From Frondihabitans sp. PAMC 28766 (GTDB taxonomy: Bacteria > Actinomycetota > Actinomycetes > Actinomycetales > Microbacteriaceae): a stretch of DNA of 64,000 nt. The position numbers were made by a program, and so were the translations under genes. The notes under the pieces are model-generated. The model was not told the DNA's origin. It searched no databases and was given only the letters and a program-made list of their open reading frames with translations. The DNA lies in contig NZ_CP014513.1 in assembly GCF_001577365.1 (NCBI RefSeq), positions 2,294,001 to 2,358,000 of the forward strand. Reading direction: 5' to 3'. Positions 6,633 through 58,856 of the stretch are shown piece after piece. Each line of letters opens with the position of its first letter. The first letter of the stretch is position 1.

Positions 6633-8325
<1,693 letters not shown>

Positions 8326-14772: not shown

Positions 14773-14799
14773 ACCACCACCGAGAGAAAGCTTTACCGC

Positions 14800-15591: not shown

Positions 15592-15630
15592 ACCGGGCCC
15601 GTCCGGCACCAATACTTCAAGGAGCCCTCG

Positions 15631-17151
15631 ATGGCAGACACTGATTTCACCTCCGACGAGGGGCCCGAGCTCGACGACTCGATGGTCGAGCGTCTGCAGA
15701 CCATCGACGAGGCCGATGCCGAGCAACGAGCCTCCGCTCTCCGACAGGGGCTGTCCGACTACGAGCTCGACGAAGAAGACCTCGATGTGCTCGAGGCCGG
15801 CGACTGGGACCCGAACGCGATCACCTACGCCCCGGCGCTGCCGGTCCTGGCCATAGTCGGCCGGCCGAACGTCGGCAAGTCGCAACTCGTCAACCGCATC
15901 CTCGGCCGTCGTGAGGCCGTCGTCGAAGACAAGCCGGGCGTGACCCGCGACCGCGTCTCGTACAAGGCCGAATGGGCCGGCCGCCGCTTCACCCTCGTCG
16001 ACACCGGCGGGTGGGAGCCCGACGCGCTCGGCATCGACGCGTCGGTAGCCATGCAGGCCGAGGTCGCCGTCGACCTCGCCGACGCCGTGCTCTTCGTGGT
16101 CGACGTCAACGTCGGTGCGACCTCGACCGACGAGCACGTGGTGAAGATGCTTCGCGCGACTCACAAGCCGGTCATTCTTGTCGCGAACAAGACGGACGAC
16201 GACCGCAAGGCGATCGAGGCCTCGGAGCTGTGGAGCCTCGGCCTCGGCGAGCCCTTCCCGGTCTCGGCGCTGCACGGCCGCGGCGTCGCCGACCTTCTCG
16301 ACAAGGCGATGAACACCCTGCCGGCTGTCTCGAACGTGGCCAAGGAGGAGATCGGCGGGCCCCGCCGCGTCGCCATTCTCGGTCGTCCGAACGTCGGCAA
16401 GTCGTCGCTGCTCAACCGGGCAGCGGGCGAAGAGCGTGTCGTCGTCAACGAGCTCGCCGGCACGACTCGTGACCCCGTCGACGAGCAGGTCGAGATCGGC
16501 GGCCGCATCTGGACGTTCGTCGACACCGCGGGGATCCGCAAGCGCGTGCACCTCCAGCAGGGTGCCGACTTCTACGCGTCTCTCCGCACCTCGGCCGCGC
16601 TCGAGAAGGCCGAGGTCGCGGTCGTCGTGCTCGACGTCACCGAGCCGATCTCGACGCAGGACCTGCGCATCATCGACCTCGTGCTCGAGTCGGGCCGCGC
16701 GCTCGTGCTCGCGTTCAACAAGTGGGATCTCCTCGACGACGACCGTCGACGTTATCTCGAGCGCGAGATCGAGCAGGATCTCGACCACGTCTCGTGGGCC
16801 CCGCGCGTCAACATCTCGGCGAAGACCGGTCGGCACCTCGAACGCCTCGTGCCGGCCCTCGAGCTCGCGCTCGAATCGTGGGACACCCGCATCCCCACGG
16901 GCAAGTTCAACGCGCTGCTTGCCGAGCTCACGCAGGAGCACCCGCACCCGGTGCGCGGTGGCAAGCAGCCCCGCATCCTCTTCGGCACCCAGGCGGCCAA
17001 CCGCCCGCCGACGTTCGTGCTCTTCACCACAGGCTTTTTGGACCCGCAGTACCGCCGATTCATCACGCGGCGTCTGCGCGAGATCTTCGGCTTCGAGGGC
17101 ACCCCGATCAATGTCAACATGCGAGTGCGGGAGAAGCGCAAGCGCTCGTAA
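15631..17151 (+). CDS. der: Ribosome biogenesis GTPase Der (EngA)
   Basis: Der is a tandem GTPase needed for 50S subunit assembly. Two GTP-binding domains are visible: [13 protein letters not shown] with DTGGWE and NKTD in the first, and [13 protein letters not shown] with DTAGIRKR and NKWD in the second. A C-terminal KH-like domain ends in [13 protein letters not shown]. The acidic 65-residue leader is normal for actinobacterial Der. AAGGAG lies nine bases before ATG 15631. At 506 residues it is full length and closes the conserved cluster. Confidence 0.97.
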
Positions 17152-17178
17152 CGCACTTCCGGTTTCGATCGGCACCCT

Positions 17179-17667
17179 CTACACCTCGTCGTGGAAGCGC
17201 CGGAGCGTCGCCATCAGGCGTTCGTCGGCGACGTGCCGCTCGGCAGCCAGGGTCGCGAGATCCCTCGATGCCGCATCGGACGCCCGGAGCAGTTCACGGT
17301 ACGGCCGGGCACCGTCGGAGCCTTCTGCGTGGCCGGAGAGCTGTGCCGTGGCCTCGAGGAAGAGCGTCTGGGGCCGACGTGCTCGTTCGGCAATGCTCTC
17401 GACGGCTGTGACGTAGTCGCCGAGAGCCCGGAACTCGCAGGCTGCCCAGGTGTGCAGCGAACTCCACGAAGCGGCCGCTGCGTCGGTGTCGCCACGCCAC
17501 GCGTCAGCGTCGTCGCCCGTCCAGACGTCTGGCACCTGCATGGTGGTGTGGCGGACCGTCAGATAAATGGCCTCTGCGTGGTCGCGCACACCGGCGAGTG
17601 TGGCCATGCGGTCGAGCAGGCCGTCGAGGTCGCCCGCGCCCGGATCGGCAGGCGTCCAGCCGGTCAC
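17179..17667 (-). CDS. WXG-domain protein without hydrolase domain (paralogue of the 46.7 and 58.5 kb genes)
   Basis: This 162-residue helical protein aligns along its length with the N-terminal domains of the two DUF1023 hydrolases in this window. Shared points are DPGAGDLDGL near the start, DHAEAIY, the WTG (WXG) turn at about residue 45, LHTWAACEFRALGDYV and ESIAERARR. It stops where the hydrolase genes continue into a linker and catalytic domain. GTG 17665-17667 overlaps the preceding WXG100-like gene as GTGA. No lipoprotein genes follow; der ends 28 bases away. It may be a stand-alone secreted partner or the remnant of a longer gene. No ESX secretion gene is nearby. Confidence 0.75.
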   Translation of the reverse strand: MTGWTPADPGAGDLDGLLDRMATLAGVRDHAEAIYLTVRHTTMQVPDVWTGDDADAWRGDTDAAAASWSSLHTWAACEFRALGDYVTAVESIAERARRPQTLFLEATAQLSGHAEGSDGARPYRELLRASDAASRDLATLAAERHVADERLMATLRRFHDEV

Positions 17668-46371: not shown

Positions 46372-46653
46372 ATGCCCAAGTACGCCGTTGACCCCGAAGG
46401 CGTCGAACACGTCGCGAAGAACCTTCGCCTGAGTTCCGACTACGCGCCCGACGGCCACCTCGCATCCGCGCACGCCTGCGGCAGCCTCGACGTCGAGACC
46501 GCTGTCGACGCAGCCAACGCTGAATTCGAACGCAATTGGAGCTCAGCTTTCGAAGGCCTCGACAGCCGAGTCGCGGGCGCCGTCGAGGCCGCTATGGGTT
46601 ACCAGGAGAGCGAGAACCGCGTCTACCAGGGCGCGATGCGACAGAGGCGGTGA
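46372..46653 (+). CDS. WXG100-like small protein, locus 1
   Basis: This 93-residue helical protein starts the first hydrolase locus. It shares with the two other small proteins the Cys-Gly pair (HACGSLD), and 17 residues on the pattern FxxxW (EFERNWSSA), then an Ala-rich helix and a Tyr (VYQG). The layout fits a helical hairpin like ESAT-6, which pairs with a partner for export. TTGACA at 46342 may be part of the promoter, though no convincing -10 box fits. The hydrolase gene begins five bases after its stop. Confidence 0.7.
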   Translation: MPKYAVDPEGVEHVAKNLRLSSDYAPDGHLASAHACGSLDVETAVDAANAEFERNWSSAFEGLDSRVAGAVEAAMGYQESENRVYQGAMRQRR

Positions 46654-46657
46654 GGGC

Positions 46658-48453
46658 GTGCAGTGGACAGGCGATGATCCCGGGCTCGGCGAAGTCGACG
46701 GCCTCGAGCACCTCGGGCGACAAATGCGCGAGCGAGAGGAGCACGCGGCCGAGATGGTCGCGATGCTCAGTCGCTCCGGCATGGGGATGGCCGAGTACTG
46801 GTCCGGTGACGCGGCCGATGAGTGGGCCGACCGCATCCGCGACGACCTCCGCGCCTACTCTCAGCTCAACGAGGTCGCCGAATCCACGTGCTCAGCGGTG
46901 CTCGTCTACGTCGACACGCTCCAGGGCATCAAACGCCGGGTCGCTTCGGCGCGCAGCCGTCTCGTCGAGGCGCAGGATGCCACGGCCAAGCTGACGAGAC
47001 AGCAAGACGAGCCATCGCCCCAACTGCAGCCCCAACTCGACGCCGCCGCCGACGATGCCAGCGCGGCCCAGCGCGCTCTCGCCTGCCTCGCCGACGAGCG
47101 GCGCGACGCCGATCACGTTCTCTGCAGTCGTCTCCGCTCGGCTTCAGACGCCGTTCGGCGATCTGCACCGGTCTCAGCGTTCAATGGCTCCGCACTGAAG
47201 TCGCTGGCGCCCGAAGCCTTGCTGAAACAGTTCTCTCGTCTGAACGAGGCGCAGCTCGAGGCTGTCCTGAACGAGCATCCCGACCTCGTGACTCGTCTGG
47301 AGGGGGCGCAACCCGCAGCAGTCGCATCCTGGTGGGAAAGCCTGTCGCCCACCAAGCAGGAAGACCTGATCGAGGCGGCACCGGCGTTGATCGGCAACAT
47401 CGACGGCGTCGCCTTCGCCGCTCGCGACCAGGCCAATCGCTTGTCGCTGGCTTCCGAGCTGGTGCGAACCAAGGCGGATCTGACGGCGGCGGAGGAGCAC
47501 AACGAGCACGTGGCCCCGACCTACCGGTGGGATACCGACGTGCTGCGTGAGCAGGTGCGGGCGCTCCAGGCCGTCGGCAGGGCGGCGCGGCCCGGCCCCG
47601 ACAACCAGAATCGCTTCGTCGTCACGCTCGATCTGACCGGTCGGCCGAAGGCTGCGGTCGCCGTCGGGAATCCGGACACGGCCTCGCAAGTCACGGTCAC
47701 CGTGCCGGGAATGGGGACGACGGTGGGCGGCTCGATGGAGTCGTGGACGACCGCGGCGGCCAACCTGCAGCGGTCGCAGAAGAAGGCAAATCTTCTCTTC
47801 AATGGCGGAAGAGAATCTGGCCTTGCTGCAGTCGCCTGGATAGGTTACGACGCTCCCAACATGCCGCCGAGCGCACAAGTCTTGGGCAACCAGAAGGCCC
47901 GTGAGGGTGGCATGCGGCTGTCGCGATTTCTCGACGGCGTCTCGGCCGCGCGAGGCTGGAAGGACGGCGAGAACCTCTCGGTGGTGGCGCATTCCTACGG
48001 AACCACGACGGCAGCTTCGGCTCTCGAGAGCACAAGAGTCGAGAGCTTCACGATGCTGGCGTCAGCCGGGCTCGAGGCGACCTCGGTGAAAGATCTCAAA
48101 GTCGATTCCGCGAACGTCTGGGCGACTCAAGCGTGGGGTGATCAAGTCGCCAACGTCGGTCGGGGGCAGCCCACCTGGGGGCATGTTCCATTCTTCCGGT
48201 TGCCTTCAATGCACAAGATAGATCCTGAGACCCTGGCTTCGGCGCAAACACCTTTAGCTCTGAAGAAGCCACGATCGCAGGGCAGACCCTCTTTCGGTCC
48301 GACGGCCACTCAGCGACGCCTCAGGTCGATGCAGCACTGAGCGGCAAGACAACATCCGAACACGGCTACCTCGATGCAGGCACGACGCCCCTTTTCAATA
48401 CGAGCCTGACCAGTCTTGGGCTCGGCCACAGCGGTCATGTGGTCAGGCAATGA
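46658..48453 (+). CDS. WXG-domain/DUF1023 alpha/beta hydrolase, locus 1 (frameshift near 48232)
   Basis: The N-terminal helical domain (about residues 1-190) has DPGLGEVDGLEHL, EEHAAEM and YWSGDAADEW (WXG turn). A middle block WWESLSPTKQEDLIEAAPAL, then IGNIDGV, is typical before DUF1023. The hydrolase has TVPGMGTTV, WIGYDAPNMP and the Ser elbow VVAHSYGTTTAA. As read it stops at 48340. One extra C at 48231-48233 restores FGANTFSSEEATIAGQTLF, a GYLDAGT ending, and a stop at 48451-48453. That stop overlaps the first lipoprotein start as ATGA, just as in locus 2. The lost part holds probable catalytic residues. Export through a type VII-like route is inferred. Confidence 0.85.
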
Positions 48454-48968
48454 CAGCCGTTGTTGCCCGTGGCCGCCGTCGGGCGTTCGTCCTCATGGCG
48501 AGCTTGCTGCTGTGCCTATCCGCCTGCTCTACGCCTGAGAAAGATCCAACAGTGCCTTCTGGAAAACCGCTGATGAAGACCGCTCCGCTCTTGGAGGCCG
48601 CCCAAAACATCATTGGGGGTGACTGGCGCACTGAGGACACGGGACTTCAGGAGTGCTTCATGGACGACGGTCGGGTCGGAGATTCATGGGCTGCTCTTCG
48701 TTTGGGCCCGGGCCTGCCGAAGGAAGGGCAGACGACGGCCCTGGAGAAGATCAGGGCCGCCTGGAGCGAGGCTGGCTATGAACCGGGCATCGGCACCCTT
48801 CCGGTGATCAACGGAGTCGAGGTGACCCAGCTCCGATACCCAGCGGCTGGCCGAGGGCCGGACGGGCTTTATCTTGAGGTGCAGGTGGCGACGACGGGCT
48901 CAACCCTCGAATCCGTTGCCAGCTGTATAGCGCGAGCCAAGCAGCCTGACGGCGAAGAGGGTCCGTGA
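48450..48968 (+). CDS. Lipoprotein 1 of locus-1 array
   Basis: A 172-residue lipoprotein: signal peptide and lipobox CLSAC at about residue 26. The mature part has GGDWRTEDTG, a Cys (QECFMD), RLGPGLP, AAWSEAGYEP, the block PVINGVEVTQLRYP and a late Cys (VASCIAR). The same positions recur in the next two genes. ATG 48450 overlaps the restored hydrolase stop (ATGA). Membrane anchoring outside the cell and tight coupling to the hydrolase suggest an immunity or accessory protein. Two Cys residues may form a disulfide. Confidence 0.8.
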   Translation: MTAVVARGRRRAFVLMASLLLCLSACSTPEKDPTVPSGKPLMKTAPLLEAAQNIIGGDWRTEDTGLQECFMDDGRVGDSWAALRLGPGLPKEGQTTALEKIRAAWSEAGYEPGIGTLPVINGVEVTQLRYPAAGRGPDGLYLEVQVATTGSTLESVASCIARAKQPDGEEGP

Positions 48969-49534
48969 TTCGGTCGCGACATGGGCGCTCAGTCGGCGTC
49001 CGCGCCGCGTTCGGCGTGGTTAGTGCCGTCATGCTTCTCCTCCCTGGTTGCAGTCGCGCGATTGTCCCCGATGATCCGCGAATCTCTCAGGACGAAGCGT
49101 TGATCGAAACACTGCCGCGACTCGAATTCGCTCAACGCACCGTTGGCGGCAAATGGCAGAACCTCGATCTCGGTTCTCAATCTTGCACGCTCCCCTCCGG
49201 CGCTGTCGGCTCCATGCAGGCAGCGACGCGTCTCGGGCCGGGCGTTCCGAAAGCCGACCAGGAAGCCATTCTTGAGTCGATCGCGAAAGATTGGACGCGA
49301 GCCGGCCGCCCACCCATCCGCTCGAAGTTGCCCGTCATCCGAGGCGTCGAAGTGACTCGGCTGCGATACCCCGGCGGCGCTCAGGAAGATGACGATGTCT
49401 ATCTCGAGTTTCAGATCGCCGACACGGCCACGTCGGTCGACTCGCGAACGCGTTGTGTTGTCGATACCGCTGACGACGATGCTGCTGAGGATGAACGAAA
49501 CGAGCCAGCACCTGAGCCACCGATTAGGGGCTGA
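48965..49534 (+). CDS. Lipoprotein 2 of locus-1 array
   Basis: A 189-residue paralogue of its neighbours, with lipobox LLPGC at about residue 29. Shared points are VGGKWQNLDLGSQSC, GSMQAATRLGPGVP, KDWTRAG, PVIRGVEVTRLRYPG and the late Cys in SRTRCVVD. The GTG start overlaps the previous stop (GTGA 48965-48968). The C-terminus is a longer acidic tail (DDDAAEDE). It is the middle gene of a tandem array that probably arose by duplication. Confidence 0.8.
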   Translation: MIRSRHGRSVGVRAAFGVVSAVMLLLPGCSRAIVPDDPRISQDEALIETLPRLEFAQRTVGGKWQNLDLGSQSCTLPSGAVGSMQAATRLGPGVPKADQEAILESIAKDWTRAGRPPIRSKLPVIRGVEVTRLRYPGGAQEDDDVYLEFQIADTATSVDSRTRCVVDTADDDAAEDERNEPAPEPPIRG

Positions 49535-49542
49535 TCTACTTC

Positions 49543-50076
49543 ATGTCGTTATGCACTCGTCATTTCCGCATCCCACCGGGCCATGGGCTTCTAGCCGTCG
49601 TCCTCGCCTTGAGTTGTCTCGTGGCAGGTTGCTCTCATCCCCGAACCACGAGAGATCCGAGAATGTCTAAAGAACAGGCCCTATCCGAAACGCTCCCCCT
49701 GATCGAATTCGCGGAGCACGCCATTGGAGGTGACTGGGAGAAGATCGATCTCGGCGCACAGGGCTGCGCGCTGCCCTCCGGCAAAACCGGAACCATGCAA
49801 GCAGCAGGGCGTCTCGGGCCAGGTGTACCAGCAGCAGACCAATCCGCACTCCTCGACAGGGTCGCGGAAGAATGGGGTCGACACGGCCACCGGCCTGTGC
49901 GGACCGTCCTTCCCGTTATCAGGGGTGTCCAGGTAACGAGGCTTCACTACTCAAACGTGGGTCGTGATCACGACGAGATCTACCTCGAACTCATGGTCGC
50001 GACGACGGGAAGCACCGTGGACAGTCGGACGCGCTGCGCCGTCGACGAGGCCCGTTATGGCACAGGCGAAGAGTGA
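49543..50076 (+). CDS. Lipoprotein 3 of locus-1 array
   Basis: A 177-residue paralogue with lipobox LVAGC at about residue 30. It has IGGDWEKIDLGAQGC, GTMQAAGRLGPGVP, EEWGRHG, PVIRGVQVTRLHY and SRTRCAVD. It resembles lipoprotein 2 more than lipoprotein 1, suggesting stepwise duplication. ATG 49543 lies eight bases after the previous stop. The relic of a fourth copy overlaps its end. Confidence 0.8.
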   Translation: MSLCTRHFRIPPGHGLLAVVLALSCLVAGCSHPRTTRDPRMSKEQALSETLPLIEFAEHAIGGDWEKIDLGAQGCALPSGKTGTMQAAGRLGPGVPAADQSALLDRVAEEWGRHGHRPVRTVLPVIRGVQVTRLHYSNVGRDHDEIYLELMVATTGSTVDSRTRCAVDEARYGTGEE

Positions 50077-50255
50077 TGCCGGGTCGACTCCGGCTCGGTC
50101 TGCCAATCGTTGCTCTGCCCGCTGTGGTTGCAATAGTGGGCGCCTGCTCCAGCCCCGAGAAACTCGGGCCTTCAGAAGTGCCTCGTGGGCAACGGCCGGG
50201 TCGGAGACGCCTGGGATTCACCTCGTTGAGGTTCAGACTTGTCCGTTGGTCGTGA
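50076..50255 (+). pseudogene. Relic of a fourth lipoprotein in the locus-1 array
   Basis: ATG 50076 opens a signal peptide with lipobox AIVGAC followed by SSPEK, as in lipoprotein 1. An internal deletion and frame change then bring in GLQKCLVGNGRVGDAWDS, read in a second frame, clearly akin to GLQECFMDDGRVGDSWAA of lipoprotein 1. After a further loss, VEVQ in the third frame corresponds to LEVQ near the lipoprotein-1 end. The open frame as written ends at 50255 and cannot make the domain. Confidence 0.85.
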
Positions 50256-50295
50256 CGTCAACTTTCGGCCATGGCCACCGCTGCGTTCGGCGCAG

Positions 50296-50955
50296 TTAAG
50301 GCGCGCCCTCGCCGCTCACAACCGCCGCAAACCCCTCCGCATCGAGCCCGGCCACGGGCAGCGCCCGACGCCCCTCAGCCCGCAACCCGTCGAGCACCAC
50401 CGCGAGGTACCGCCGCCACAGCTCCGACCGCCCGGCTCCGAGCCGATACAGCGGCTCGAGCATCATGAAGATCGGGCCGACGTCGGTGGCGGTCACCCCA
50501 TCGCGCAGCACGCCGGCGCCGCGGGCGCGGTCGAACAGCGGGGTCAGCTCGGCGAGGAGGGCGGTGGCGGCCTCGGGGTGGATGCCGGCCGGGCCTCCGA
50601 GGTCGTTCTGGCCGAGGAGCGTCTCGCACAACCCTCGATCCTGCGCCTGATGCGTCGCCGCGATCTCGAAGAACGTCACGAGCGCGAGCCACGGGTCGTC
50701 GATCTGCAGGGCCGGCCGTACCTCTGCCATCACGTCGCGCAGAGTGTCGTCGTAGAGGCGCGCGACGATCTCGCGTTTGCTGGCGAAGTTGCGGTAGACC
50801 GTGCCCACGCCGACTCCGGCGTGCTGGGCGATGTCCTCCAGCGTCGCCGACAGGCCGCGCTGCGCGAACACCTCGCGAGCCGCTTGCACGAGGCGGTCGG
50901 CATTGGCAGCGGCGTCGCGGCGCTTGGGCCGCGCGGGGCCGGCGGCCGGGCTCAC
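50296..50955 (-). CDS. TetR-family transcriptional regulator
   Basis: This 219-residue repressor has the TetR helix-turn-helix: AAREVFAQRGLSATLEDIAQHAGVGVGTVYRNFASKREIV, near residues 25-65. The C-terminal ligand domain is helical, of normal length and no evident specificity. The GTG start 50953-50955 overlaps the preceding reductase stop as GTGA, so it is the second gene of an operon. Twin inverted repeats before the first gene are likely its operators, giving autoregulation. Confidence 0.92.
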   Translation of the reverse strand: MSPAAGPARPKRRDAAANADRLVQAAREVFAQRGLSATLEDIAQHAGVGVGTVYRNFASKREIVARLYDDTLRDVMAEVRPALQIDDPWLALVTFFEIAATHQAQDRGLCETLLGQNDLGGPAGIHPEAATALLAELTPLFDRARGAGVLRDGVTATDVGPIFMMLEPLYRLGAGRSELWRRYLAVVLDGLRAEGRRALPVAGLDAEGFAAVVSGEGAP

Positions 50956-51824
50956 GACCGTGCCCGTTCGGCCTGCAACTGCGCGTCCAAGAACTCGAGC
51001 TCGCCCTGCACCGCGGGGGAGTCCGTCCGCAGCGGCCCCGCCGCATCACTCCGAAGGAACAACCGCAACACCGTCACCAGGATCGGGATCGGCACGATCC
51101 GCAACGCACCGAACGCCCGCGGCACCGGCTTGCCCGGCAGAGCGCCGAGATTCGCGCGCATCCGCACCAGCATCTCGCGGATCGCACCCGGGTTGGACGC
51201 CAGAGAAGTGGGCCCACCCGCCGCGTGCACCGCGAGCCCGAGCGGTACCTCGAACGCGGCATGCGTGGCCAGCCAGGCGAGCATGTGGGCCTCTGGCTTC
51301 GCGGTGACGCCTGCCGAGCGGAACACCTGCACGGTGCGCCGCACCCGCCCCGTGACCGTGCCGTCGACTTCCCCGATCGGCATCGTGACGAGCCGCGTCA
51401 GCGCCGACTCGGAGCGGTAGCGGACCACGTCGCCGTCCATGACACCTCCGATGGTCGGGAAGCCGAGCAGCACCCGCTCGCGGCCGATGGCGGTGCCGGG
51501 CGCCTCGGATCCTGCCGCCCAATTCAGGAGGAACAGCACCTCGCCCTCGGCCTCGAGTCGCGCGATCGATTCGAGCACGGAGTCGACCTGGTGCGTTCGC
51601 ACCGCGACGACGATCAGGTCGAAGTGGCCCGCGGGGTGCTCGACCACCGGCACGGCCACGCTGCGGACGGCCCCGTTGTCGCCCTCGGCGAGCATGATGC
51701 CGTGCTGCTGCAGCGCGGCCAGCCGCCCACCCCGCGCGACGAGCGTCACGTCGTGCCTGGCCTCATGCAGGCGGGCGGCGAGGACGGTGCCGATGACGCC
51801 GGCTCCGTAGACGATGATTTTCAA
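50952..51824 (-). CDS. Ketopantoate reductase-family oxidoreductase
   Basis: This 290-residue protein has the Rossmann motif IIVYGAGVIGTVLAARL at the start and HFDLIVVAVRTHQ at about residue 70, as in 2-dehydropantoate 2-reductases. Coupling to a TetR regulator, and the weak match of the C-terminal region, suggest a paralogue with another substrate and not the pantothenate enzyme. The start is TTG 51822-51824, supported by AGGAG seven bases upstream. No ATG is suitable. Two palindromic operators lie 54-111 bases upstream. Confidence 0.85.
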   Translation of the reverse strand: MKIIVYGAGVIGTVLAARLHEARHDVTLVARGGRLAALQQHGIMLAEGDNGAVRSVAVPVVEHPAGHFDLIVVAVRTHQVDSVLESIARLEAEGEVLFLLNWAAGSEAPGTAIGRERVLLGFPTIGGVMDGDVVRYRSESALTRLVTMPIGEVDGTVTGRVRRTVQVFRSAGVTAKPEAHMLAWLATHAAFEVPLGLAVHAAGGPTSLASNPGAIREMLVRMRANLGALPGKPVPRAFGALRIVPIPILVTVLRLFLRSDAAGPLRTDSPAVQGELEFLDAQLQAERARS

Positions 51825-51877
51825 GCGTGTCTCCTGCGGGGAGGGGCGGGGTGGGCGGTGCGGGGCGGGGCTTGCGA

Positions 51878-51935
51878 AGCGGAATGGGTGATTCCGCTCA
51901 GCATAGCCGAAACGGAAGGATCACTTCCGTTTCGG
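51878..51935. promoter_or_regulatory. Twin palindromic operators for the TetR regulator
   Basis: AGCGGAAT (51878-51885) and ATTCCGCT (51891-51898) form one inverted repeat; CCGAAACGGAAG (51907-51918) and CTTCCGTTTCGG (51924-51935) form another. Both have a 5-base centre and share the core CGGAA-N-G-G-(3)-A-(1-2)-TTCCG. They lie 33 bp apart between their centres. Symmetry and place upstream of a tetR operon point to TetR binding. Confidence 0.7.
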
Positions 51936-51959
51936 GGGAGACCGCCAGGGGCAGCGCCA

Positions 51960-52133
51960 ATGGACGTCGCCGTCAAACTTCAGCTCGCGCCCGACCAGCT
52001 CGGCACCGACTCCACCCGCGATTCGCTGGCGGCCCTCCTCGCCCAGCGCTCTGCCCGGCCGGTGCGGCAGGTGGACCGTGACGCGGAGCGGCCGGTGTTG
52101 CGGTTTCACAGGCCGCCACTGAGCGGGCAATAA
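51960..52133 (+). CDS. Possible small ORF, divergent from the reductase-tetR operon
   Basis: A 57-codon frame from ATG 51960, with AGGGG about ten bases upstream. The product would be soluble and basic at the end (VDRDAERPVLRFHRPPLSG). No family is recognised. Its support is the ribosome site and its place beyond the twin operators, which would make a divergent TetR-controlled pair. It may instead be non-coding. Confidence 0.3.
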   Translation: MDVAVKLQLAPDQLGTDSTRDSLAALLAQRSARPVRQVDRDAERPVLRFHRPPLSGQ

Positions 52134-52173
52134 AACCGACGAGTGAGACCGGCCGGCCGCACATGGTGCGGAA

Positions 52174-54105
52174 CTACCGCACCTCGCAGGCGATCCCGTC
52201 TTTGTCGGCGTCACGCTTAGGGTTCGCGTTGTACAGCGGCGTGTTGAAGTAGGTGCCGGAAGCGACTGTCTCGTGGCGCCCCGAGACGAGGTCGTACTTG
52301 GTGCCGTCGCGAGCAACACCGTGGGGGTAGACGGCGTTCAACGCTTTGCAGTTCTGATAGACCACGACGGGCACCGACTTGATCGCCGAGCTGTGGCCGG
52401 CGGGCGTATATCCGGCTTTGCGGCCAGTCGCGACAACGGTGATGCCCGCGCCGACGTCCGTGGTGCGAACCACATACGTAGGCCCCGTTTTGCCGGAAAT
52501 GGCGACACCGTTGCGGCGCCACTGCACGCTGACGACGGTGCCCGAGGTCCACGAGCCGACGTTCACGGTCAGGGTGGCCCCAGCCTTGGCGGTACCGCGG
52601 ATCGACGGGGTGCCGACCTTGGGCAGCGTGCCGGGGCGAGGGATGACCGATGAGCTGGCTTTCGCAGCCGTGGCGTAACCCGACTTCGACCCGATGACGT
52701 GCACCGAGACGCTTTTGCCCACGTCAGACGCCGAGACGGTGTAGGTCGAGTGGCTCGCGCCGCCGATGGCGCTGCTGCCGCGGTACCACTGGTAGGCGAG
52801 CGTGATGCCCGCCGGCTTCCAAGTGCCGGCGGTCGCCGTGAGCCTGCCGCCGAGCTGGGCCGAGCCGGAGATCTTCGGAGTGGGTGCCGTCGTGATCGAC
52901 GCCAGGTGCACAGTTTCGGCTGAGGAGGTTCGCGTCGCCGTCGCGTACGCGCTCAGACGGCCGGTCACGGTCACACTGATCGACTTGCCGGCGTCCGCCG
53001 CAGTGAGGGTGTAGCTCGATGCCGTGGCCTTGGAGATCGCCGACCCGTTGCGCAGCCACTGGTATCCGAAGGTGACGCCCGCGGGGAGCCAGTTGCCGGG
53101 TGCAGCCCTGAGGGTCTGAAAGACGGTCGGGGTGCCCGACACGGTGGGGGCCGCGGAGGTCAGATCGCCGGGAGCGATCACGAGAGCAGGGCTCGCCACG
53201 GTGGCGGAAAGGTAACCGGTCTCAGATCCGGTGGTCTTCACGGTGAGCGGGCTACCGAAGTCGTGCGCCGTCGGCGTGTAGGTGGCAAGCGTTGCGCCGG
53301 CGATGGCTGCATTTCCGCTGTACCACTGGTAGCTCAGCTCGACGCCGTCGCCCCAGGCCCCGGGGAGTGCGGACACCGGCACGCCGACCTGTGCTCTGTC
53401 GGCGCTGTAGGTCGCCGCCGGAGCCGGGCTGATAGTGCCTAGCGCGGCGGTGACAGCGTCGACAACGGTGAAGCCGCTGGTCTGGGGGTCTCCCCAATCG
53501 GCCGTGCCCGACACGGCGGTGGCCGTCACGGTTGCGCCGTCGCCGCTCGGCGTGAGGTTCGTGAGGGACGAGGGGGCGATCGTGGCCCCGTCGAGTCCGG
53601 TGACGACAGGCAGGGCGAACGGCACGCCGACGACCTGCCCAGTCTGAGAGACCTTCTCGCCGACCGCAGAGATCGTCGCCGTGAGGCCGCCGAGGGGTGA
53701 GAGGTCGGTGATGCGGTTGTTGTCGACGCTGACCGACGAGAGGCTGGTGAGGCTGCTCAGCGGGTTGATCTCGCCGATCTGGCCACCGTCGAGGTTCAGG
53801 GTCGTGAGCCCTGTGAACGACCCCAGCGACGAGATGTCGCCGACGTCGGGGCACGTCAGTGAGCTGATCGAAGCGAGTTGGTCGGCGGTGAAAGTCTGCG
53901 TAGCGGCGAGCCCGAGCGCTTGGTCGGTGCAAGCGGCGAGCGCAGGATCCGAGATGGTCACCGGGTCGGTGTCGGCCCGGGCGCTCGCGGCGTCGACGGC
54001 GACGAGCGAGGCGGTGGCCAAGGCGAGGGATACGACCAGGGCGACGGTGCGCCTGGAGGAGAGAGGCTTTGCGGCGCGCGCGGGCGACGACATGGTGCGA
54101 GACAT
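52174..54105 (-). CDS. Surface protein with leucine-rich repeats, Ig-like repeats and Excalibur domain
   Basis: The 643-residue exported protein has a signal peptide ending near residue 45 (ASARAD). Leucine-rich repeats follow at about residues 90-150 (LSSLGSFTGLTTLNLDGGQI, then NPLSSLTSLSSVSVDNNRI). Five or so tandem beta-sandwich repeats of about 85 residues come next, each with a PAGVTFGYQWLRNGSAISKA-like centre and ending in a T-G-x-x-x-x-Y-x-x-A pattern. The end is an Excalibur calcium-binding motif DADKDGIACE. No sortase signal is present. It lies between the two hydrolase loci but has no evident link with them. It probably binds cell wall or ligands. Confidence 0.9.
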   Translation of the reverse strand: MSRTMSSPARAAKPLSSRRTVALVVSLALATASLVAVDAASARADTDPVTISDPALAACTDQALGLAATQTFTADQLASISSLTCPDVGDISSLGSFTGLTTLNLDGGQIGEINPLSSLTSLSSVSVDNNRITDLSPLGGLTATISAVGEKVSQTGQVVGVPFALPVVTGLDGATIAPSSLTNLTPSGDGATVTATAVSGTADWGDPQTSGFTVVDAVTAALGTISPAPAATYSADRAQVGVPVSALPGAWGDGVELSYQWYSGNAAIAGATLATYTPTAHDFGSPLTVKTTGSETGYLSATVASPALVIAPGDLTSAAPTVSGTPTVFQTLRAAPGNWLPAGVTFGYQWLRNGSAISKATASSYTLTAADAGKSISVTVTGRLSAYATATRTSSAETVHLASITTAPTPKISGSAQLGGRLTATAGTWKPAGITLAYQWYRGSSAIGGASHSTYTVSASDVGKSVSVHVIGSKSGYATAAKASSSVIPRPGTLPKVGTPSIRGTAKAGATLTVNVGSWTSGTVVSVQWRRNGVAISGKTGPTYVVRTTDVGAGITVVATGRKAGYTPAGHSSAIKSVPVVVYQNCKALNAVYPHGVARDGTKYDLVSGRHETVASGTYFNTPLYNANPKRDADKDGIACEVR

Positions 54106-54231
54106 GCGGTTCCTTTTCGGGAAGGAATGGGTGTGATCAGCCCGCCCGGCTGGCGGGTGATTGAAGTGTAGGGGGTCGTGGGATTCTGGTCGGTGTCGTG
54201 TCGGTCACCCTTTCGACCGGCCGGGGTGTTG

Positions 54232-54672
54232 TCAGGCGGAGAAAAGACGCTCCTCCAGGGCTCGAACAGTCGTGTCGACATCGATGAGGCGTCCAGAGGA
54301 TGCCGTGCTGATCTTCGCCGCGAGTCGCTTCGGCCAGCACACCCGCCCCCTCCGCACCTCGAACCAGCCTCCGAACAGCGGAAGGTCCGCTTTGATGAAG
54401 CAGAGCACCCCGCGCACCTCGACCTCTGGCACGACCTGCTGCACGATGTCGATCTGCCGCAGCATCCCGTCGACGAGCTTCGTCTGCTCACGCCGCCCGA
54501 CTATCAGTTTCTCGACACGCGGCCGAATGAAGCCGCCCTCGACGACGAGCGACGGCCGCTGGTCTTTGTAGCGCTTGGCGTCGATCACCCATACCCCGGC
54601 GCCGGTCACGGCGAGATGGTCGATGTTGGCGCGGCTGCCGGGGATGCGACGATCGTGCAGGGTTCGGAGGCC
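54232..54672 (-). pseudogene. NERD-domain protein, N-terminally truncated
   Basis: The open frame begins after a stop at 54673-54675 with LHDRRIPGSRANIDHLAV, the middle of a NERD (nuclease-related) domain, then VWVIDAKRYKDQRPSLVVEGG, the catalytic-like IDAK motif, and RGVLCFIKADLPLFGGWFEVR. The first 100 or more residues of such proteins are missing, and no start codon lies before the core; GTG 54609 would lose another block. The break is directly next to the locus-2 lipoprotein array, so the truncation probably arose when that array arrived or rearranged. Confidence 0.75.
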
Positions 54673-54701
54673 CTATGAGGCGATGTCGCTCGGCTGCATT
54701 G

Positions 54702-55250
54702 TCACTGCTCATGATCGGGTGCTGGGAAGCACGAACTATCTGCGGTGATCGACCGAATAGTTCGCGAAGCCGAGTACGTCAGAACAGTCCCCAGCTCTGT
54801 CGTCGCCGCGACCTCGGTGAAGTCATCATTCGATTGATCACTCGGTACGACGACCTGAGTTGAATAGCCCGCTGAATGCCACTCCTTGAGCACGGCCGCA
54901 ATCGAGTCACCAACGCGGTCGACACCGGATGCGTAGAGCACTTCTGAGAATTGGACTCGATCGGCCGACCCTGTACAGATGACTGGATCCTGACGTCGGG
55001 CGACATCTGCGGACCACGGAGTCGCCCTGTCGCCGAACATCCACGCCCCGGGATCAGCCTCAACGAGCCGGTCGACCTCCGTCACGACTTCGCTCTTCTG
55101 CTGGTTTGGAGAGTTCGAGACTGAATGATCTGACCGGGTCATTCTCAGGGCTCCTTTGGTTATGACGACGGCCACGATTGCTGCGCAGACGACGACTGCG
55201 AGGAGCGGCAACGGCTTACCGCGGCGGAGGCTCGATCGCTTCAGCACCAT
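54702..55250 (-). CDS. Membrane-anchored protein 3 of locus-2 array
   Basis: A 182-residue paralogue of the next two genes. It has a basic N-terminus and an N-terminal membrane helix (LLAVVVCAAIVAVVI) but no lipobox. The outer domain keeps AWMFGDRATPWSADVARRQ, a Cys (PVICTG), LKEWHSAGYS, and a late Cys (SSCFP). ATG 55248-55250 after GGAAAGG is chosen; a GTG precedes it. It is the last gene of the array, and the truncated NERD gene follows. Confidence 0.75.
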   Translation of the reverse strand: MVLKRSSLRRGKPLPLLAVVVCAAIVAVVITKGALRMTRSDHSVSNSPNQQKSEVVTEVDRLVEADPGAWMFGDRATPWSADVARRQDPVICTGSADRVQFSEVLYASGVDRVGDSIAAVLKEWHSAGYSTQVVVPSDQSNDDFTEVAATTELGTVLTYSASRTIRSITADSSCFPAPDHEQ

Positions 55251-55397
55251 CACGTACCTTTCCTTAAGCCGACGTGTCGACTGACTTCAGGGCCGCTCGC
55301 GACTGCTGGCCGACCCCGCCGGGCTGCTCGTTTAGAAGGGGTTTCGGGCGACAGTTTCGCCCTGGTCGTTTGCCGGGCGCGGGGTTCGCGCCGAGCC

Positions 55398-55973
55398 TCA
55401 CTCGTCGCTGGCTATGAAGCACTGTGTGCGACCCGAGAGGCTGGTCCCGCTGGAGTTAGCGCTGTAGGCCAGAGTGATTCCTTCGGGGGTCTGCGCGACG
55501 ATCTCGGGGTAGCCGCTGCTTAGCGGAATGGCGTCACGAACCTCATAGCCGCGCTCTCGCCAAGCATCTCGCACGGCGTCGATTGCCGACTCGAGGCTGC
55601 CGACCGTCGGCCCGAGGAGAGCGACTTCGTAACGTTCGGAGCCCTCCGAGGTGAAGGAGACACCGTCGACGCAAAGCTCCGCACTTTGCCGCTCAGCGAC
55701 CTCGACAGCCCATGGCGTCGCGTCTCCGGAAAACTTCCAAGATCCGTCCGTCATATCCAGGGTTGCGCTGATATCGCGAAGAAGCTGGACGCGCTGGAGT
55801 TGCGGCGAGACGGGGGAAGTGCGTTGGGATGCGCTCAGGGCCACTCCAGTGATGATCATGATGACGACGATGACGAGAAGGACGTGCGGGAGGAATCGCC
55901 AGCGCGTTCGTCCCCTAGCGAGACGGATGCCGACTGAGTGCCCGGACTCGTTCGGGTTCACGGGCGGAGCCAC
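55398..55973 (-). CDS. Membrane-anchored protein 2 of locus-2 array
   Basis: A 191-residue paralogue with an N-terminal membrane helix (HVLLVIVVIMIITGVAL) and no lipobox. The domain has SWKFSGDATPWAVEVAERQ, a Cys (AELCVD), LLGPTVG, DAWRERGYEV, PEGITLAYSANSSGTSLSGR and a Cys (TQCFI). GTG 55971-55973 is the listed start; a ribosome site is not clear, and a later start is possible. The gaps of 147 and 210 bases on either side are gene-free. Confidence 0.75.
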   Translation of the reverse strand: MAPPVNPNESGHSVGIRLARGRTRWRFLPHVLLVIVVIMIITGVALSASQRTSPVSPQLQRVQLLRDISATLDMTDGSWKFSGDATPWAVEVAERQSAELCVDGVSFTSEGSERYEVALLGPTVGSLESAIDAVRDAWRERGYEVRDAIPLSSGYPEIVAQTPEGITLAYSANSSGTSLSGRTQCFIASDE

Positions 55974-56183
55974 ATGACGGAAGGCGGAGGTCTGTTCACA
56001 AGATTGAGATCGATCGGGTCTCGTACTAGCTCTCCACTAAGGCCGGGAGCATCGTGCTCTTTCGTAGTTGATCGGTCGAACGCCCCGTCGAGGTCACCTA
56101 CCGAGGTCGGAAGTGCCGTCGCGACCGACATCACGACCTCTCACTACGGTCTGCCGGTACCAGTGGGTGAATCCTGAACGGCA

Positions 56184-56729
56184 TCACGCGGTCGCAGGAT
56201 CGGCGCATCCGGTCTTGGCGGAGAGACTTGAGCCGCTCGCATTCGCAGTGAACGCCAACGAAATTCCGTCCGGCGTGTTGGTCGTGATTTCGGGGTGGCC
56301 GCTCTCAATGGGAATGACGACTTTTACCGTGAAACCCCGGGCATGCCAGTTGCCGCCCACGTTTTCCACTGCCGAATCGAGGTCCGCGAACGGGGGCCCG
56401 AAAAGCGAGATGTCGACTCGTTCTTGGCCGCCTCGGCTGAGAGTGGTGACGTCGTCGCACGGGGTAGTGGGGTAGCGCTGCGCAATGTCGCTCGACCAGG
56501 GCGTCGTTCCGTCTTCGAAGGTCCACGCGCCCTGTAGGCCCGCCAGAGTCGTTTCGAGCTCGTGAATCAACTGCTGCCGCTGCTTTTCGAGGGGCTCCGC
56601 AGGTGTGTGTGTGCACGACGTCAAGAAGAGTCCAATCAGGAAGAGAACGAGGTATGAGAGGCGTCGGGCAGAGACGTGTGAGGGAGGCGGTGACCCGACC
56701 GGCGAGAATTGTTCTCCGTGGGATTTCAT
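56184..56729 (-). CDS. Lipoprotein 1 of locus-2 array
   Basis: A 181-residue lipoprotein with lipobox LTSC at about residue 39. The domain has AWTFEDGTTPWSSDIAQRY, a Cys (TPCDD), LFGPPF, GNWHARGF, PDGISLAFTANASGSSLSA and a Cys (TGCAD). ATG 56727-56729 overlaps the hydrolase stop as ATGA, exactly as in locus 1. It is the first of three related genes and the only one of them with a lipobox. Confidence 0.8.
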   Translation of the reverse strand: MKSHGEQFSPVGSPPPSHVSARRLSYLVLFLIGLFLTSCTHTPAEPLEKQRQQLIHELETTLAGLQGAWTFEDGTTPWSSDIAQRYPTTPCDDVTTLSRGGQERVDISLFGPPFADLDSAVENVGGNWHARGFTVKVVIPIESGHPEITTNTPDGISLAFTANASGSSLSAKTGCADPATA

Positions 56730-58543
56730 CCGATGGGCCAGACGAACGGTCGAACTGGTGAAGCAATGAGCGGCCTCGTGCCCGTGCTCGTTGCGGCGAT
56801 GTTGTGGAGGGATTGAGTGCCCGAATCGAAATACCCCTGGCCGGTAGGAGCGGACACGATCGGCAGCCCACCGGATCCAAAAGCGTCGTGACCCGCCGTA
56901 GCGATGGAGCTCTCGCTTCCCTCAGGCCCGCCTTCGACGCTGAACGGAAGGGCTCCGAAATGATTATCGGGTGCGATGCGGTGGTTGGGAGCGACCGTGG
57001 GCTGTTTCTTGGACAGGTAGCTGACGACATCGTCGATGACGTCGGGTCGAACCGTCCGGCCGATCGTTGCGATGAAATCTCGCTTGGCCTGCGTCGAGAA
57101 GACTTGCGGCTGACCGTGTTCGACATCGACATGCAGCGCGCGCGCATTCGGCACAGCCGAGGCATCGATTCCCGCCGATGCCACCAGCGTCACCGTTTTG
57201 ACGTCGAAGCGTGTTCTCGTCAGTGCATATGCGGCCGTCGTGGTGCCGTACGAATGCGCCACGACACTTACATCGGGCGGCGAAGCTCTACGCGTGAACC
57301 GGATACCATCCAGTTCGCTGGCAAGTCGTTCGGCACCGTTGATCGCGCGAGTGTTCATCAGAACGCTGCTGGATGAGGTCGGGTGCTGCTCGGAGGCAGT
57401 TAGATCGGGCGTTGCGTATCCGATCCAGGCAACAACGGCGTGCGTCGACGGGTCAATCTTAATCTGCTCGTTGTAAAGGGCCGCGCAGGGCCCTAGCCAG
57501 CCGCTCAGGCTGCTTGCCCACGTATTCATCCCGGGTACCGCCCACGTGACCTTCTGGGCGGTGTCCATGTTGCCGATGGCGACCGCTGCCAACGGCGGCG
57601 CATTTTCGAGGTTGAGGTCTAGAAGCCCTCGCCCTGCGGGCCCGTCGGCACTGGCGACGGCGCGCATCGCCTCATCGACAGTCGCGCGCTGCTCCTTCGT
57701 CAAGTCGTCCCGCAGACCAGCCACATCCAGCTGCTGCCGGTTCGCATCGATCCGAGTGGAGAAAGGAACGCCACCGAGGTTGCCGATGATCGCCGGGGCG
57801 CCCGTGATGAGTTCGGCCTGCTGCTGCTCGCTCAGCGACGCCCACCATGCGGCGACATCGTCAGCCGGAGGCGGGTCGTTCCAGAAGTCCTGCGTGAGGC
57901 TGGGGTCAGCTGAGACGAGTTCGTCCAGTTCGGTGGCCGACAGCGATCCCATCACGCCGAGCAGCGAGGCCGTGTCGAGCGACGCGAGCTTGGCGAGCGA
58001 CATGCCGGCGGGCAGGATCGCGTGACCGGATCGGTCGAGCTCGAGGTGGACGGAGTGCAGGCTTCGGGCGAGGTCGTCCTCGGCCTGCTGTCGTTCGAGG
58101 GCCAGGGCATTCAATGCAGCGGTCGTTGAGGCCGTTGTGGCAAGCAGGTCGTCGTCGAGATCCTGCCGTCGCCTTGTCAGCGTTTCAGGGTCGAGGAAGT
58201 CGAGGGGCTGCGAGGCGGCCTCGTGCGCGGCGGTCATCAGCATCTGCTGACGCCGAGCACGTTCTTTGATCGACTGGATGGCATCGACGTATCGCCGGAG
58301 GGCGTCGCGCTCGTTGTCGGCCCACGTGTGGAGACGGGCCCAGGCGACGACGACTTCGGCCGCATTGCGAGACCAGGCGGTGTGGGCCGTCCCTGACCAG
58401 GATTCGGCCACCTGATCCGCACGATGTGCGACGAGCTGTTGCATGTCGGCGGCGTGCTCTTGGAGCTCGAGCATCGTGATCAGACGATGCTCGAGTTCGT
58501 CGGTCTCTCCGGCTCCCGGATCGGCGTGAGACCAGTCAGCCAT
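56726..58543 (-). CDS. WXG-domain/DUF1023 alpha/beta hydrolase, locus 2
   Basis: A 605-residue intact version. The N-terminal helical domain has DPGAGETDELEHR, EHAADM, ESWSGTAHTAW (WXG turn near residue 55) and QSIKERARR. The linker reads WWASLSEQQQAELITGAPAI, then IGNLGGVPFSTRIDANR, the usual block before DUF1023. The catalytic domain has WAVPGMNTWAS, WIGYATPDL, the Ser elbow VVAHSYGTTTAAY and the probable acid Asp in KRDFIATIG. The His that usually comes just before the Y-F-D-x-G motif is not there (GQGYFDSGT), so activity may be altered. Its first 8 bases overlap the small WXG100-like gene. Confidence 0.88.
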   Translation of the reverse strand: MADWSHADPGAGETDELEHRLITMLELQEHAADMQQLVAHRADQVAESWSGTAHTAWSRNAAEVVVAWARLHTWADNERDALRRYVDAIQSIKERARRQQMLMTAAHEAASQPLDFLDPETLTRRRQDLDDDLLATTASTTAALNALALERQQAEDDLARSLHSVHLELDRSGHAILPAGMSLAKLASLDTASLLGVMGSLSATELDELVSADPSLTQDFWNDPPPADDVAAWWASLSEQQQAELITGAPAIIGNLGGVPFSTRIDANRQQLDVAGLRDDLTKEQRATVDEAMRAVASADGPAGRGLLDLNLENAPPLAAVAIGNMDTAQKVTWAVPGMNTWASSLSGWLGPCAALYNEQIKIDPSTHAVVAWIGYATPDLTASEQHPTSSSSVLMNTRAINGAERLASELDGIRFTRRASPPDVSVVAHSYGTTTAAYALTRTRFDVKTVTLVASAGIDASAVPNARALHVDVEHGQPQVFSTQAKRDFIATIGRTVRPDVIDDVVSYLSKKQPTVAPNHRIAPDNHFGALPFSVEGGPEGSESSIATAGHDAFGSGGLPIVSAPTGQGYFDSGTQSLHNIAATSTGTRPLIASPVRPFVWPIG

Positions 58544-58856
58544 GGCTCGGGATGCTCTCGGCGATGACTTCGGCTGTGGCGGCTGCCGACTGAGCTGCTG
58601 CCGAGACGGCCGCTTCGGTCGCCCTGTACGTGTCAGCCGCCGTGATGGCGTCGGTGGCGAGTTGCTGGGTGCCGTCGCAGGCCGCGTGCCATGCCCGCTT
58701 GAAGGTGTGCCCGTCGTCGCTCAAGAGCGATTCCGCCGCCCTGCTACCGCAGCTCGAGACTGTCGGCACCTCACTCGCCGGGCCGGAATCCGCTGCCGAA
58801 CTGAGCTGGTTCGCCGCACCCGCGACCTCGTCGTAGTCCATGCGGTAAGTGCTCAT
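58536..58856 (-). CDS. WXG100-like small protein, locus 2
   Basis: This 106-residue helical protein opens the second locus. Like its paralogues it has a Cys-Gly pair (SSCGSRA) and FxxxW (TFKRAWHAA) some 17 residues later, then Thr- and Ala-rich helices. It begins with STYRMDYDEVAGAANQL, a first-helix pattern common in WXG100 proteins. Its stop lies 8 bases inside the hydrolase gene. ATG 58854-58856 follows AAAGGAT. Probably a heterodimer partner for the hydrolase N-terminus. Confidence 0.75.
   Translation of the reverse strand: MSTYRMDYDEVAGAANQLSSAADSGPASEVPTVSSCGSRAAESLLSDDGHTFKRAWHAACDGTQQLATDAITAADTYRATEAAVSAAAQSAAATAEVIAESIPSHG

What the first reader, a model, noticed from the sequence alone, without database searches (positions are those of the whole stretch)
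46372..58856. WXG100-like/DUF1023 hydrolase/lipoprotein-array system in two facing copies
Two loci have the same order: small helical protein, WXG-domain protein fused to a DUF1023-type alpha/beta hydrolase, then three tandem secreted lipoproteins or membrane-anchored proteins whose first member overlaps the hydrolase stop in an ATGA. Direct reading shows the layout and the motifs. Known: WXG100/LXG-type N-termini guide polymorphic toxins through type VII systems. Inference: the hydrolase is an exported effector and the array holds surface immunity or cofactor proteins, multiplied under selection. No ESX machinery gene is in this window. I know of no described system with this exact make-up.
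Basis: partly seen in the sequence, partly recalled or inferred. Interest (0 to 1): 0.88.

Follow-up and report, generated by a model that had tools for sequence, protein, structure and literature searches.

The report
Exported hydrolase toxins with lipoprotein antidotes
An actinobacterium carries several copies of a gene set that looks like a secreted enzyme used against neighbouring bacteria, followed by rows of surface proteins that probably protect the producer; similar sets, some with extra enzyme tails, occur in related bacteria.

Summary
The two facing modules are real and not isolated. Each has a small helical protein, a DUF1023 (PF06259) alpha/beta hydrolase with a WXG100-like N-terminus, and tandem lipoproteins or membrane-anchored proteins of one family. 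A third intact module and one decayed module lie elsewhere in the same Frondihabitans-like genome. In 299 Microbacteriaceae genomes, 102 of 122 hits of the lipoprotein family lie downstream of a DUF1023 hit, up to six per hydrolase; the family also follows such hydrolases in Nocardiopsis, Streptomonospora and Glycomyces. Seven displaced hydrolase tails lie inside arrays, each followed by a lipoprotein gene: the tail-plus-immunity layout of polymorphic toxin systems. The hydrolase profile matches EsxA-type structures, most small partners tested carry a YxxxD/E-type motif, and an EccC ATPase gene is in the genome. Best reading: a type VII-exported antibacterial esterase or lipase with surface immunity proteins, comparable to TslA/TilA but with other families. 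Toxicity, secretion, substrate and binding are untested. Against a pure immunity role: 15 short-frame DUF1023 hydrolases also have such a lipoprotein. In copy A the hydrolase frame is broken near its 3' end.

The parts
46372..46653 (+). copy A small helical partner (93 aa), YQESE near its C-terminus
   Evidence: alignment A9; motif
46658..48340 (+). copy A WXG-like/DUF1023 hydrolase as sequenced (560 aa); HSYG nucleophile motif present; 3' end out of frame from about 48229
   Evidence: PF06259 E 6.6e-32; tail split over two frames 48080-48238 and 48229-48429
48229..48453 (+). rest of the hydrolase tail of copy A in another frame, with the candidate catalytic His; its TGA overlaps the ATG at 48450
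   Evidence: tail profile E 1e-13; frames
48450..48968 (+). array member A1, lipoprotein
   Evidence: family profile 2e-19
48965..49534 (+). array member A2, lipoprotein (4-base overlap with A1)
   Evidence: family profile 3e-19
49543..50076 (+). array member A3, lipoprotein
   Evidence: family profile 1e-20
50077..50300 (+). decayed fourth array member (approximate limits)
   Evidence: 50162-50227 matches 48637-48702, 77% identity, E 9e-9; frames
54702..55253 (-). array member B3, N-terminal membrane anchor, no lipobox Cys
   Evidence: family profile 8e-19
55398..55973 (-). array member B2, N-terminal membrane anchor, no lipobox Cys
   Evidence: family profile 4e-23
56184..56729 (-). array member B1, lipoprotein; ATGA overlap with the hydrolase stop
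   Evidence: family profile 8e-25; structure model mean pLDDT 84
56726..58543 (-). copy B WXG-like/DUF1023 hydrolase, intact (605 aa); candidate triad Ser431, Asp489, His552
   Evidence: PF06259 E 2.6e-18; conservation; model mean pLDDT 92
58536..58856 (-). copy B small helical partner (106 aa), YRATE near its C-terminus
17170..17661 (-). decayed module: leader domain only; remains of a small partner just upstream by eye
   Evidence: profile match to positions 3-176, E 2e-24, one TAG inside; frames

Best explanation
Each module is a polymorphic toxin locus of a type VII secretion system. The small partner and the WXG-like N-terminus form the export signal read by the EccC-type ATPase. The exported DUF1023 domain, a serine alpha/beta hydrolase, attacks an ester at the surface of competing cells, perhaps a membrane lipid. 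The array proteins sit outside the membrane of the producer and block the enzyme of kin cells. Arrays grow by tandem duplication and by recombination that brings in a hydrolase tail together with its lipoprotein gene, leaving older tails and lipoproteins downstream. Shown here: gene order, families, leader homology, copy number, displaced tails, genomic linkage. Inferred: export, enzyme target, toxicity, inhibition by the array proteins, direction of the recombination.
For: Association: 102 of 122 listed lipoprotein-family hits lie downstream, same strand, within 6 kb of a DUF1023 hit; of 43 hydrolases with frames of 590 aa or more among the 78 rows entered, 41 have at least one; the 40 counted as long have 1-6 (14, 12, 11, 1, 1, 1). 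In 47 sequences read in detail, 89 of 90 domain matches lie downstream of a hydrolase body on its strand. Displaced tails: of 54 tail matches, 46 follow a body, 1 is the second half of copy A, 7 have no full body; all 7 are preceded by a lipoprotein domain and followed by one 147-183 nt on; three more by eye in Nocardiopsis L006 and L007. Leader: profile positions 10-93 hit EsxA at 1.5e-5; of 120 listed relatives 8 carry PF21725 and 2 PF06013 with PF06259. Partner: Pfam WXG100 in 2 of 6 scanned; [YF]xxx[DE] in 7 of 10, same column in all 7; shuffles average 2.3 of 10. Machinery: EccC-type ORF; EccC beside the module in G278. Alleles: hydrolase B is 47% identical to that of G003, C 52% to that of G001, other pairs 32-35%. 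Array members are closer within a module (26-60%) than between modules (16-29%). GC3 0.63-0.80 in ten module genes against 0.86-0.93 in four other genes.
Against: No toxicity, secretion or binding data. 15 short-frame hydrolases also have a family lipoprotein, 14 of them just one, so the lipoprotein may be a general partner. Lipoprotein distances correlate with hydrolase body (r 0.83) as well as tail (0.80) and N-terminus (0.76), so that test does not single out the tail. 20 of 122 lipoprotein hits were not assigned to an entered hydrolase; two long-frame hydrolases have no family member nearby. Seven of 47 sequences have no lipoprotein match. EccC is common in the family anyway: 31 of 32, 5 of 8 and 32 of 40 genomes in three groups. 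EccB and EccD searches found nothing, but rang in no control genome either. One of the five structures hit by the leader profile is the coiled-coil protein EzrA (3.5e-4), so part of the signal may be general helix. The fold search points to alpha/beta hydrolases of many activities, not to lipases in particular. Two array members of B lack a lipobox. Copy A as sequenced cannot make a complete enzyme.
Confidence: 0.72

Rival explanations
1. The lipoproteins are partners of the hydrolase (anchor, lipase chaperone or activator) and the module modifies the producer's own envelope or scavenges lipids; arrays are plain tandem duplications.
For: 15 short-frame hydrolases have a lipoprotein too. A stand-alone DUF1023 gene with a hydrophobic N-terminus lies beside genes that I read as ligA and/or gatC in L002, L076, L144 and L146 (gene names by eye), which suggests an ordinary envelope role for the domain.
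Against: Displaced tails each followed by a lipoprotein (7 of 7), copy numbers from 1 to 6, decayed copies and divergent alleles in close relatives fit conflict better than housekeeping.
Confidence: 0.18
2. The modules are degenerating selfish or relic loci with no present function in this strain.
For: Copy A has a split frame, one module is reduced to its leader, arrays A and C contain decayed members.
Against: Hydrolases B and C have open frames, and B keeps Ser, Asp and His positions conserved in 75 rows; many other genomes carry long-frame hydrolases with array proteins.
Confidence: 0.06
3. The effector acts on eukaryotic hosts or predators and the lipoproteins protect the producer only incidentally.
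For: T7-exported proteins of other actinobacteria can act on hosts (recalled).
Against: Arrays of protectors and tail exchange are described for conflict between bacteria (PMC3482391, section 41).
Confidence: 0.04

Closest known systems
TslA/TlaA1/TlaA2/TilA of Staphylococcus aureus (PMC10730906; abstract, section 9 and Discussion read)
   Same: T7-exported lipase, small helical partners, lipoprotein immunity in several non-identical copies beside the toxin domain
   [quoted passage not shown] TilA is DUF576; here the leader is N-terminal, the candidates for immunity are 3' and have an LppA/DUF4853-like fold, and no array protein matches a Pfam family
Polymorphic toxin systems, including Tox-ABhydrolase-3 with T7SS/WXG (Zhang et al. 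2012, PMC3482391; passages and section 41 read)
   Same: constant 5' delivery part, 3' toxin, immunity gene after it, strings of immunity genes, standalone toxin cassettes
   Different: the paper was not among those found with DUF1023; the immunity families listed there for ABhydrolase-3 are Imm66 and Imm69; here the displaced pieces are only the last part of the hydrolase domain. Whether DUF1023 is ABhydrolase-3 was not tested
EsaG, TipC and TsaI immunity arrays of firmicute T7SS (PMC9484751; passages read)
   Same: tandem non-identical immunity genes; the tsaI locus also holds a small piece of the TspA toxin region; TipC has a predicted lipoprotein signal
   Different: other phylum, other toxin and immunity families
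LppA of Mycobacterium tuberculosis (2v7s) and DUF4853 protein ACTODO_00621 (4mjg)
   Different: no sequence match found; their function is not known to me
Mycobacterial DUF2563 - PF22905/PF06259 hydrolase - lipoprotein set (L026, M. montefiorense)
   Same: same order: small protein, helical N-terminus plus PF06259, lipoprotein gene
   Different: its N-terminal domain is a Pfam family of its own; the lipoprotein gives only an inconclusive profile match

Membership tests
Polymorphic toxin system | N-terminal delivery domain joined to a C-terminal enzyme domain | tested here: met
   WXG100-like leader plus PF06259; model with long helices 15-171, then an alpha/beta hydrolase
Polymorphic toxin system | candidate immunity gene directly 3' of the toxin gene | tested here: met
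   first lipoprotein hit 42-367 nt after the hydrolase hit in 40 long-frame loci
Polymorphic toxin system | displaced toxin tails paired with immunity genes | tested here: met
   7 displaced tails in 4 of 47 sequences, all followed by a lipoprotein; Nocardiopsis L006 and L007 by eye
Polymorphic toxin system | toxin domain shown toxic and neutralised by the immunity protein | not testable with these tools
   needs expression and competition tests
Polymorphic toxin system | exchange of unrelated toxin domains behind a constant N-terminus | tested here: inconclusive
   loci were selected by the hydrolase, so other domains behind this leader would be missed
Type VII secretion substrate (WXG100 type) | WXG100-type helical hairpin | tested here: met
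   profile A7 against EsxA 2vrz/2vs0 E 1.5e-5, 4lws 2.9e-4, 3gvm 8.8e-4 (the fifth hit is EzrA, 3.5e-4); single sequences score 11-12 bits against a TIGR03930 cut-off of 44.85
Type VII secretion substrate (WXG100 type) | small helical partner with [YF]xxx[DE] near its C-terminus | tested here: met
   7 of 10 partners, all three of the own genome; 3 of 10 lack it, two of them the Pfam WXG100 ones
Type VII secretion substrate (WXG100 type) | EccC/EssC ATPase in the genome | tested here: met
   FtsK_SpoIIIE twice in one ORF; FHA match just under its cut-off
Type VII secretion substrate (WXG100 type) | secretion depends on the T7 machinery | not testable with these tools
   needs deletion of the EccC gene and secretome
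Abhydrolase_8 / DUF1023 (PF06259) | Pfam gathering score | tested here: met
   A 111 bits, B 66.8 bits, cut-off 20.5
Abhydrolase_8 / DUF1023 (PF06259) | Ser-Asp-His positions kept | tested here: met
   over 75 rows Ser431 and Asp489 invariant, His552 at 90% or more; copy A has its His out of frame; that these three form the triad is my reading
TslA/TilA | reverse domain order and DUF576 immunity lipoprotein | tested here: not met
   leader is N-terminal; no Pfam family over its cut-off in the array proteins of the window
LppA-like lipoprotein fold | same fold as 2v7s | tested here: inconclusive

The most novel reading that the evidence does not exclude
LppA/DUF4853-fold lipoproteins are a widespread but unrecognised immunity family of actinobacteria against T7-exported DUF1023 hydrolases, from Microbacteriaceae and Nocardiopsis to mycobacteria. 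These toxins diversify by exchanging only the last part of one enzyme domain, so that mostly the catalytic Ser stays with the constant part while Asp and His arrive with the new tail and its lipoprotein gene.
Probability: 0.35. Interest if true: 0.85.

Novelty: new variant of a known kind. Interest (0 to 1): 0.66.

Why it matters
As far as I know (recalled), antibacterial T7 toxins have been shown in Bacillota, and whether T7 systems of actinobacteria serve competition between bacteria is open. This module gives a compact test in environmental bacteria. It would also give a function to DUF1023, to a lipoprotein family without a Pfam entry in the scans made here, and perhaps to LppA-type lipoproteins of mycobacteria.

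Tried and rejected
Pfam and NCBIfam gave no family over its cut-off for the array or small proteins of the window; of 36 array proteins scanned, single members gave only scattered weak matches, the best 0.0041. Sequence search of two array proteins against 5.8 billion proteins found only the window's own proteins. The distance test did not single out the tail over the body. My first EccC query was flawed because the ORF runs into a signal peptidase; its count of 290 of 299 genomes is not used, and one search replaces it. EccB and EccD searches are uninformative; a mycosin-like protease is present below the family cut-off. Profile comparison of array proteins with lipoproteins beside DUF1023 genes in L026, L005 and L075 was inconclusive. 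PDB sequence search with the lipoprotein profile gave nothing below E 0.28. I recall that lppA and other lipoprotein genes of M. tuberculosis lie beside DUF1023-type genes; paper searches gave no paper on such a pair (listings only), I fetched no such sequence, and it stays a lead. An earlier wording of mine, that the catalytic Ser always stays behind, did not hold: one of seven displaced tails (L117) has an HSYG motif just upstream, and one in L006 includes it.

Counting notes: I entered the lipoprotein rows (122) but only 78 hydrolase rows, whose own listing was cut. At least two listed rows with long frames but matches of the stand-alone type (G169, G219) were not entered, and short-frame rows were entered mainly for genomes with a lipoprotein hit; G076 (591 aa) was counted with the short ones. 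In one search I tested 40 of the 49 lipoprotein-positive genomes; not all of the 32 in the first group were shown to carry a long hydrolase. The 40 fetched loci were chosen from the rows for length and score. Copy A and near-identical bodies were dropped to reach the 38 loci. The ten small partners were picked by hand.
Full report
What is there. Both hydrolases belong to PF06259, Abhydrolase_8/DUF1023. The array proteins reach no Pfam or NCBIfam cut-off. Three corrections apply. The ATGA overlap is real only in copy B. In copy A the hydrolase tail is split over two frames near 48.23 kb, and only the second frame reaches the TGA that overlaps the first array gene. Two of the three array proteins of B are membrane-anchored without a lipobox, by eye.

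More copies. A profile of the hydrolases found a third intact module in the same genome, about 150 kb away (L030: small 6995-7315, hydrolase to 9303, array members at 9300, 9998 and 11673 plus decayed ones). It also found a decayed module in the window at 17170-17661, reduced to its leader domain. The fourth PF06259 gene over the cut-off is a stand-alone version whose neighbours I read as ligA and gatC (gene names by eye). Names of close database relatives, and the contig length of G001 (4036723), which is that of a Frondihabitans australicus record, place the genome in or near Frondihabitans. Of 7 genomes of the genus, 3 have a full-length hydrolase match.

One family of array proteins. The nine intact array proteins of the three modules align with invariant Cys, Trp, Gly, Pro and Cys. 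Two Cys and a Gly stay invariant in 36 members, mostly from other genera, and Cys, Trp, Gly, Pro and Cys in the window's six with 14 from Nocardiopsis-type loci. Members are closer within a module (26-60% identity) than between modules (16-29%). An iterated profile run over 47 sequences gave 90 domain matches at E 0.01 or less in 40 of them; all but one (L107) lie downstream of a hydrolase body on its strand. Genome-wide, 49 of 299 Microbacteriaceae genomes have a hit at 1e-5. Of 122 hits, 102 lie within 6 kb downstream of a DUF1023 hit, and 41 of 43 long-frame hydrolases entered have at least one. In one relative (L073) six domains follow the hydrolase, two pairs of them fused in single genes. 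In loci of Nocardiopsis, Streptomonospora and Glycomyces the same family follows the hydrolase, with up to three copies.

Displaced tails. Scanning the same 47 sequences with body and tail profiles gave 54 tail matches. Of these, 46 follow a body and one is the second half of copy A. Seven stand without a full body, in L030 (1), L110 (1), L111 (3) and L117 (2). Each of the seven lies between array proteins and is followed by one after 147-183 nt. In L111 the order is hydrolase, lipoprotein, tail, lipoprotein, tail, lipoprotein, tail, lipoprotein, lipoprotein. No full body without a tail was seen except L074 and L075, a divergent subfamily; L117 has 37 residues of body joined to one tail. Nocardiopsis loci L006 and L007 show the same pattern by eye. 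This is the layout that Zhang et al. 2012 explain by recombination that replaces the toxin tip and brings its immunity gene along, leaving older immunity genes downstream (PMC3482391, section 41).

Export. The hydrolase profile matches EsxA-type WXG100 structures with positions 10-93; one of the five structures hit is the coiled-coil protein EzrA. Of 120 listed relatives, 8 carry Pfam's PF21725 (a T7SS signal domain, name recalled) and 2 carry WXG100 PF06013 besides PF06259. In 2 of 6 small partners scanned, the partner itself is a Pfam WXG100 protein. Seven of ten small partners, including all three of this genome, carry [YF]xxx[DE] near the C-terminus at one alignment column; shuffles give 2.3 of 10 and reach 7 in 0.1% of trials. 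A similar motif is named as a requirement for LXG and T7SSa substrates in PMC10730906, though it is not clear in TlaA1 and TlaA2 (Discussion). The genome has an EccC-type ORF, 16 WXG100 matches and a mycosin-like protease below the family cut-off. In genome G278 an EccC gene and a WXG100 gene lie directly upstream of the hydrolase.

How it most likely works. I read the module as a T7-exported toxin with surface immunity. The nearest worked-out case is TslA/TilA of S. aureus, a T7-exported phospholipase A neutralised by a lipoprotein encoded in several copies (PMC10730906, abstract, section 9 and Discussion). The likeness is in mode of action, not membership.

What speaks against it. Fifteen short-frame hydrolases also have a downstream family member, 14 of them one, so the lipoprotein may first have been a general partner of the enzyme. 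Lipoprotein divergence follows the hydrolase body as closely as the tail. EccC is common in the family in any case. Nothing here shows toxicity, export or inhibition.

Literature. No paper in the library holds both DUF1023 and 'type VII secretion'. DUF1023 occurs in four papers; I saw a passage in two, one a table line and one a reference. Papers holding PF06259 or Abhydrolase_8 were seen as a listing only. A search for T7SS, Microbacteriaceae, immunity and toxin together found none. The library lacks most subscription papers, so a published description cannot be excluded.

Noticed in passing
L047:8650-13848 (G000:C1 about 2.89 Mb): The EccC-type ORF runs without a stop into a signal peptidase I domain (PF10502); the matching stretch of G001 contains a TGA. 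Real fusion or sequence error was not decided.
   Followed up: partly
window 52174-54600 and L072:3391-5445, 14614-16932: LRR/Excalibur-type and, by eye, NERD-like genes beside copy B resemble genes that flank the module of G001, which carries a different module allele: possibly one site with exchanged modules.
   Followed up: no
L048-L051 (other loci of the own genome): Several scattered WXG100 pairs, some next to larger ORFs that may be further T7 substrates (L052-L054 were fetched but not read).
   Followed up: no
L011, L013-L016, L018, L019, L022, L024: Very long mycobacterial and nocardial frames with seven DUF1023 body matches each.
   Followed up: no
L074:7981-10094 and L075:6421-9115: A divergent hydrolase subfamily at what looks like one syntenic site in two relatives, with a small helical protein seen in one and a single lipoprotein in the other.
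   Followed up: partly
L111:4423-4779 and 8467-8823: First and last lipoprotein of the tail-lipoprotein array are 95% identical while the other pairs are 78-86% identical, hinting at recent copying within the array.
   Followed up: no
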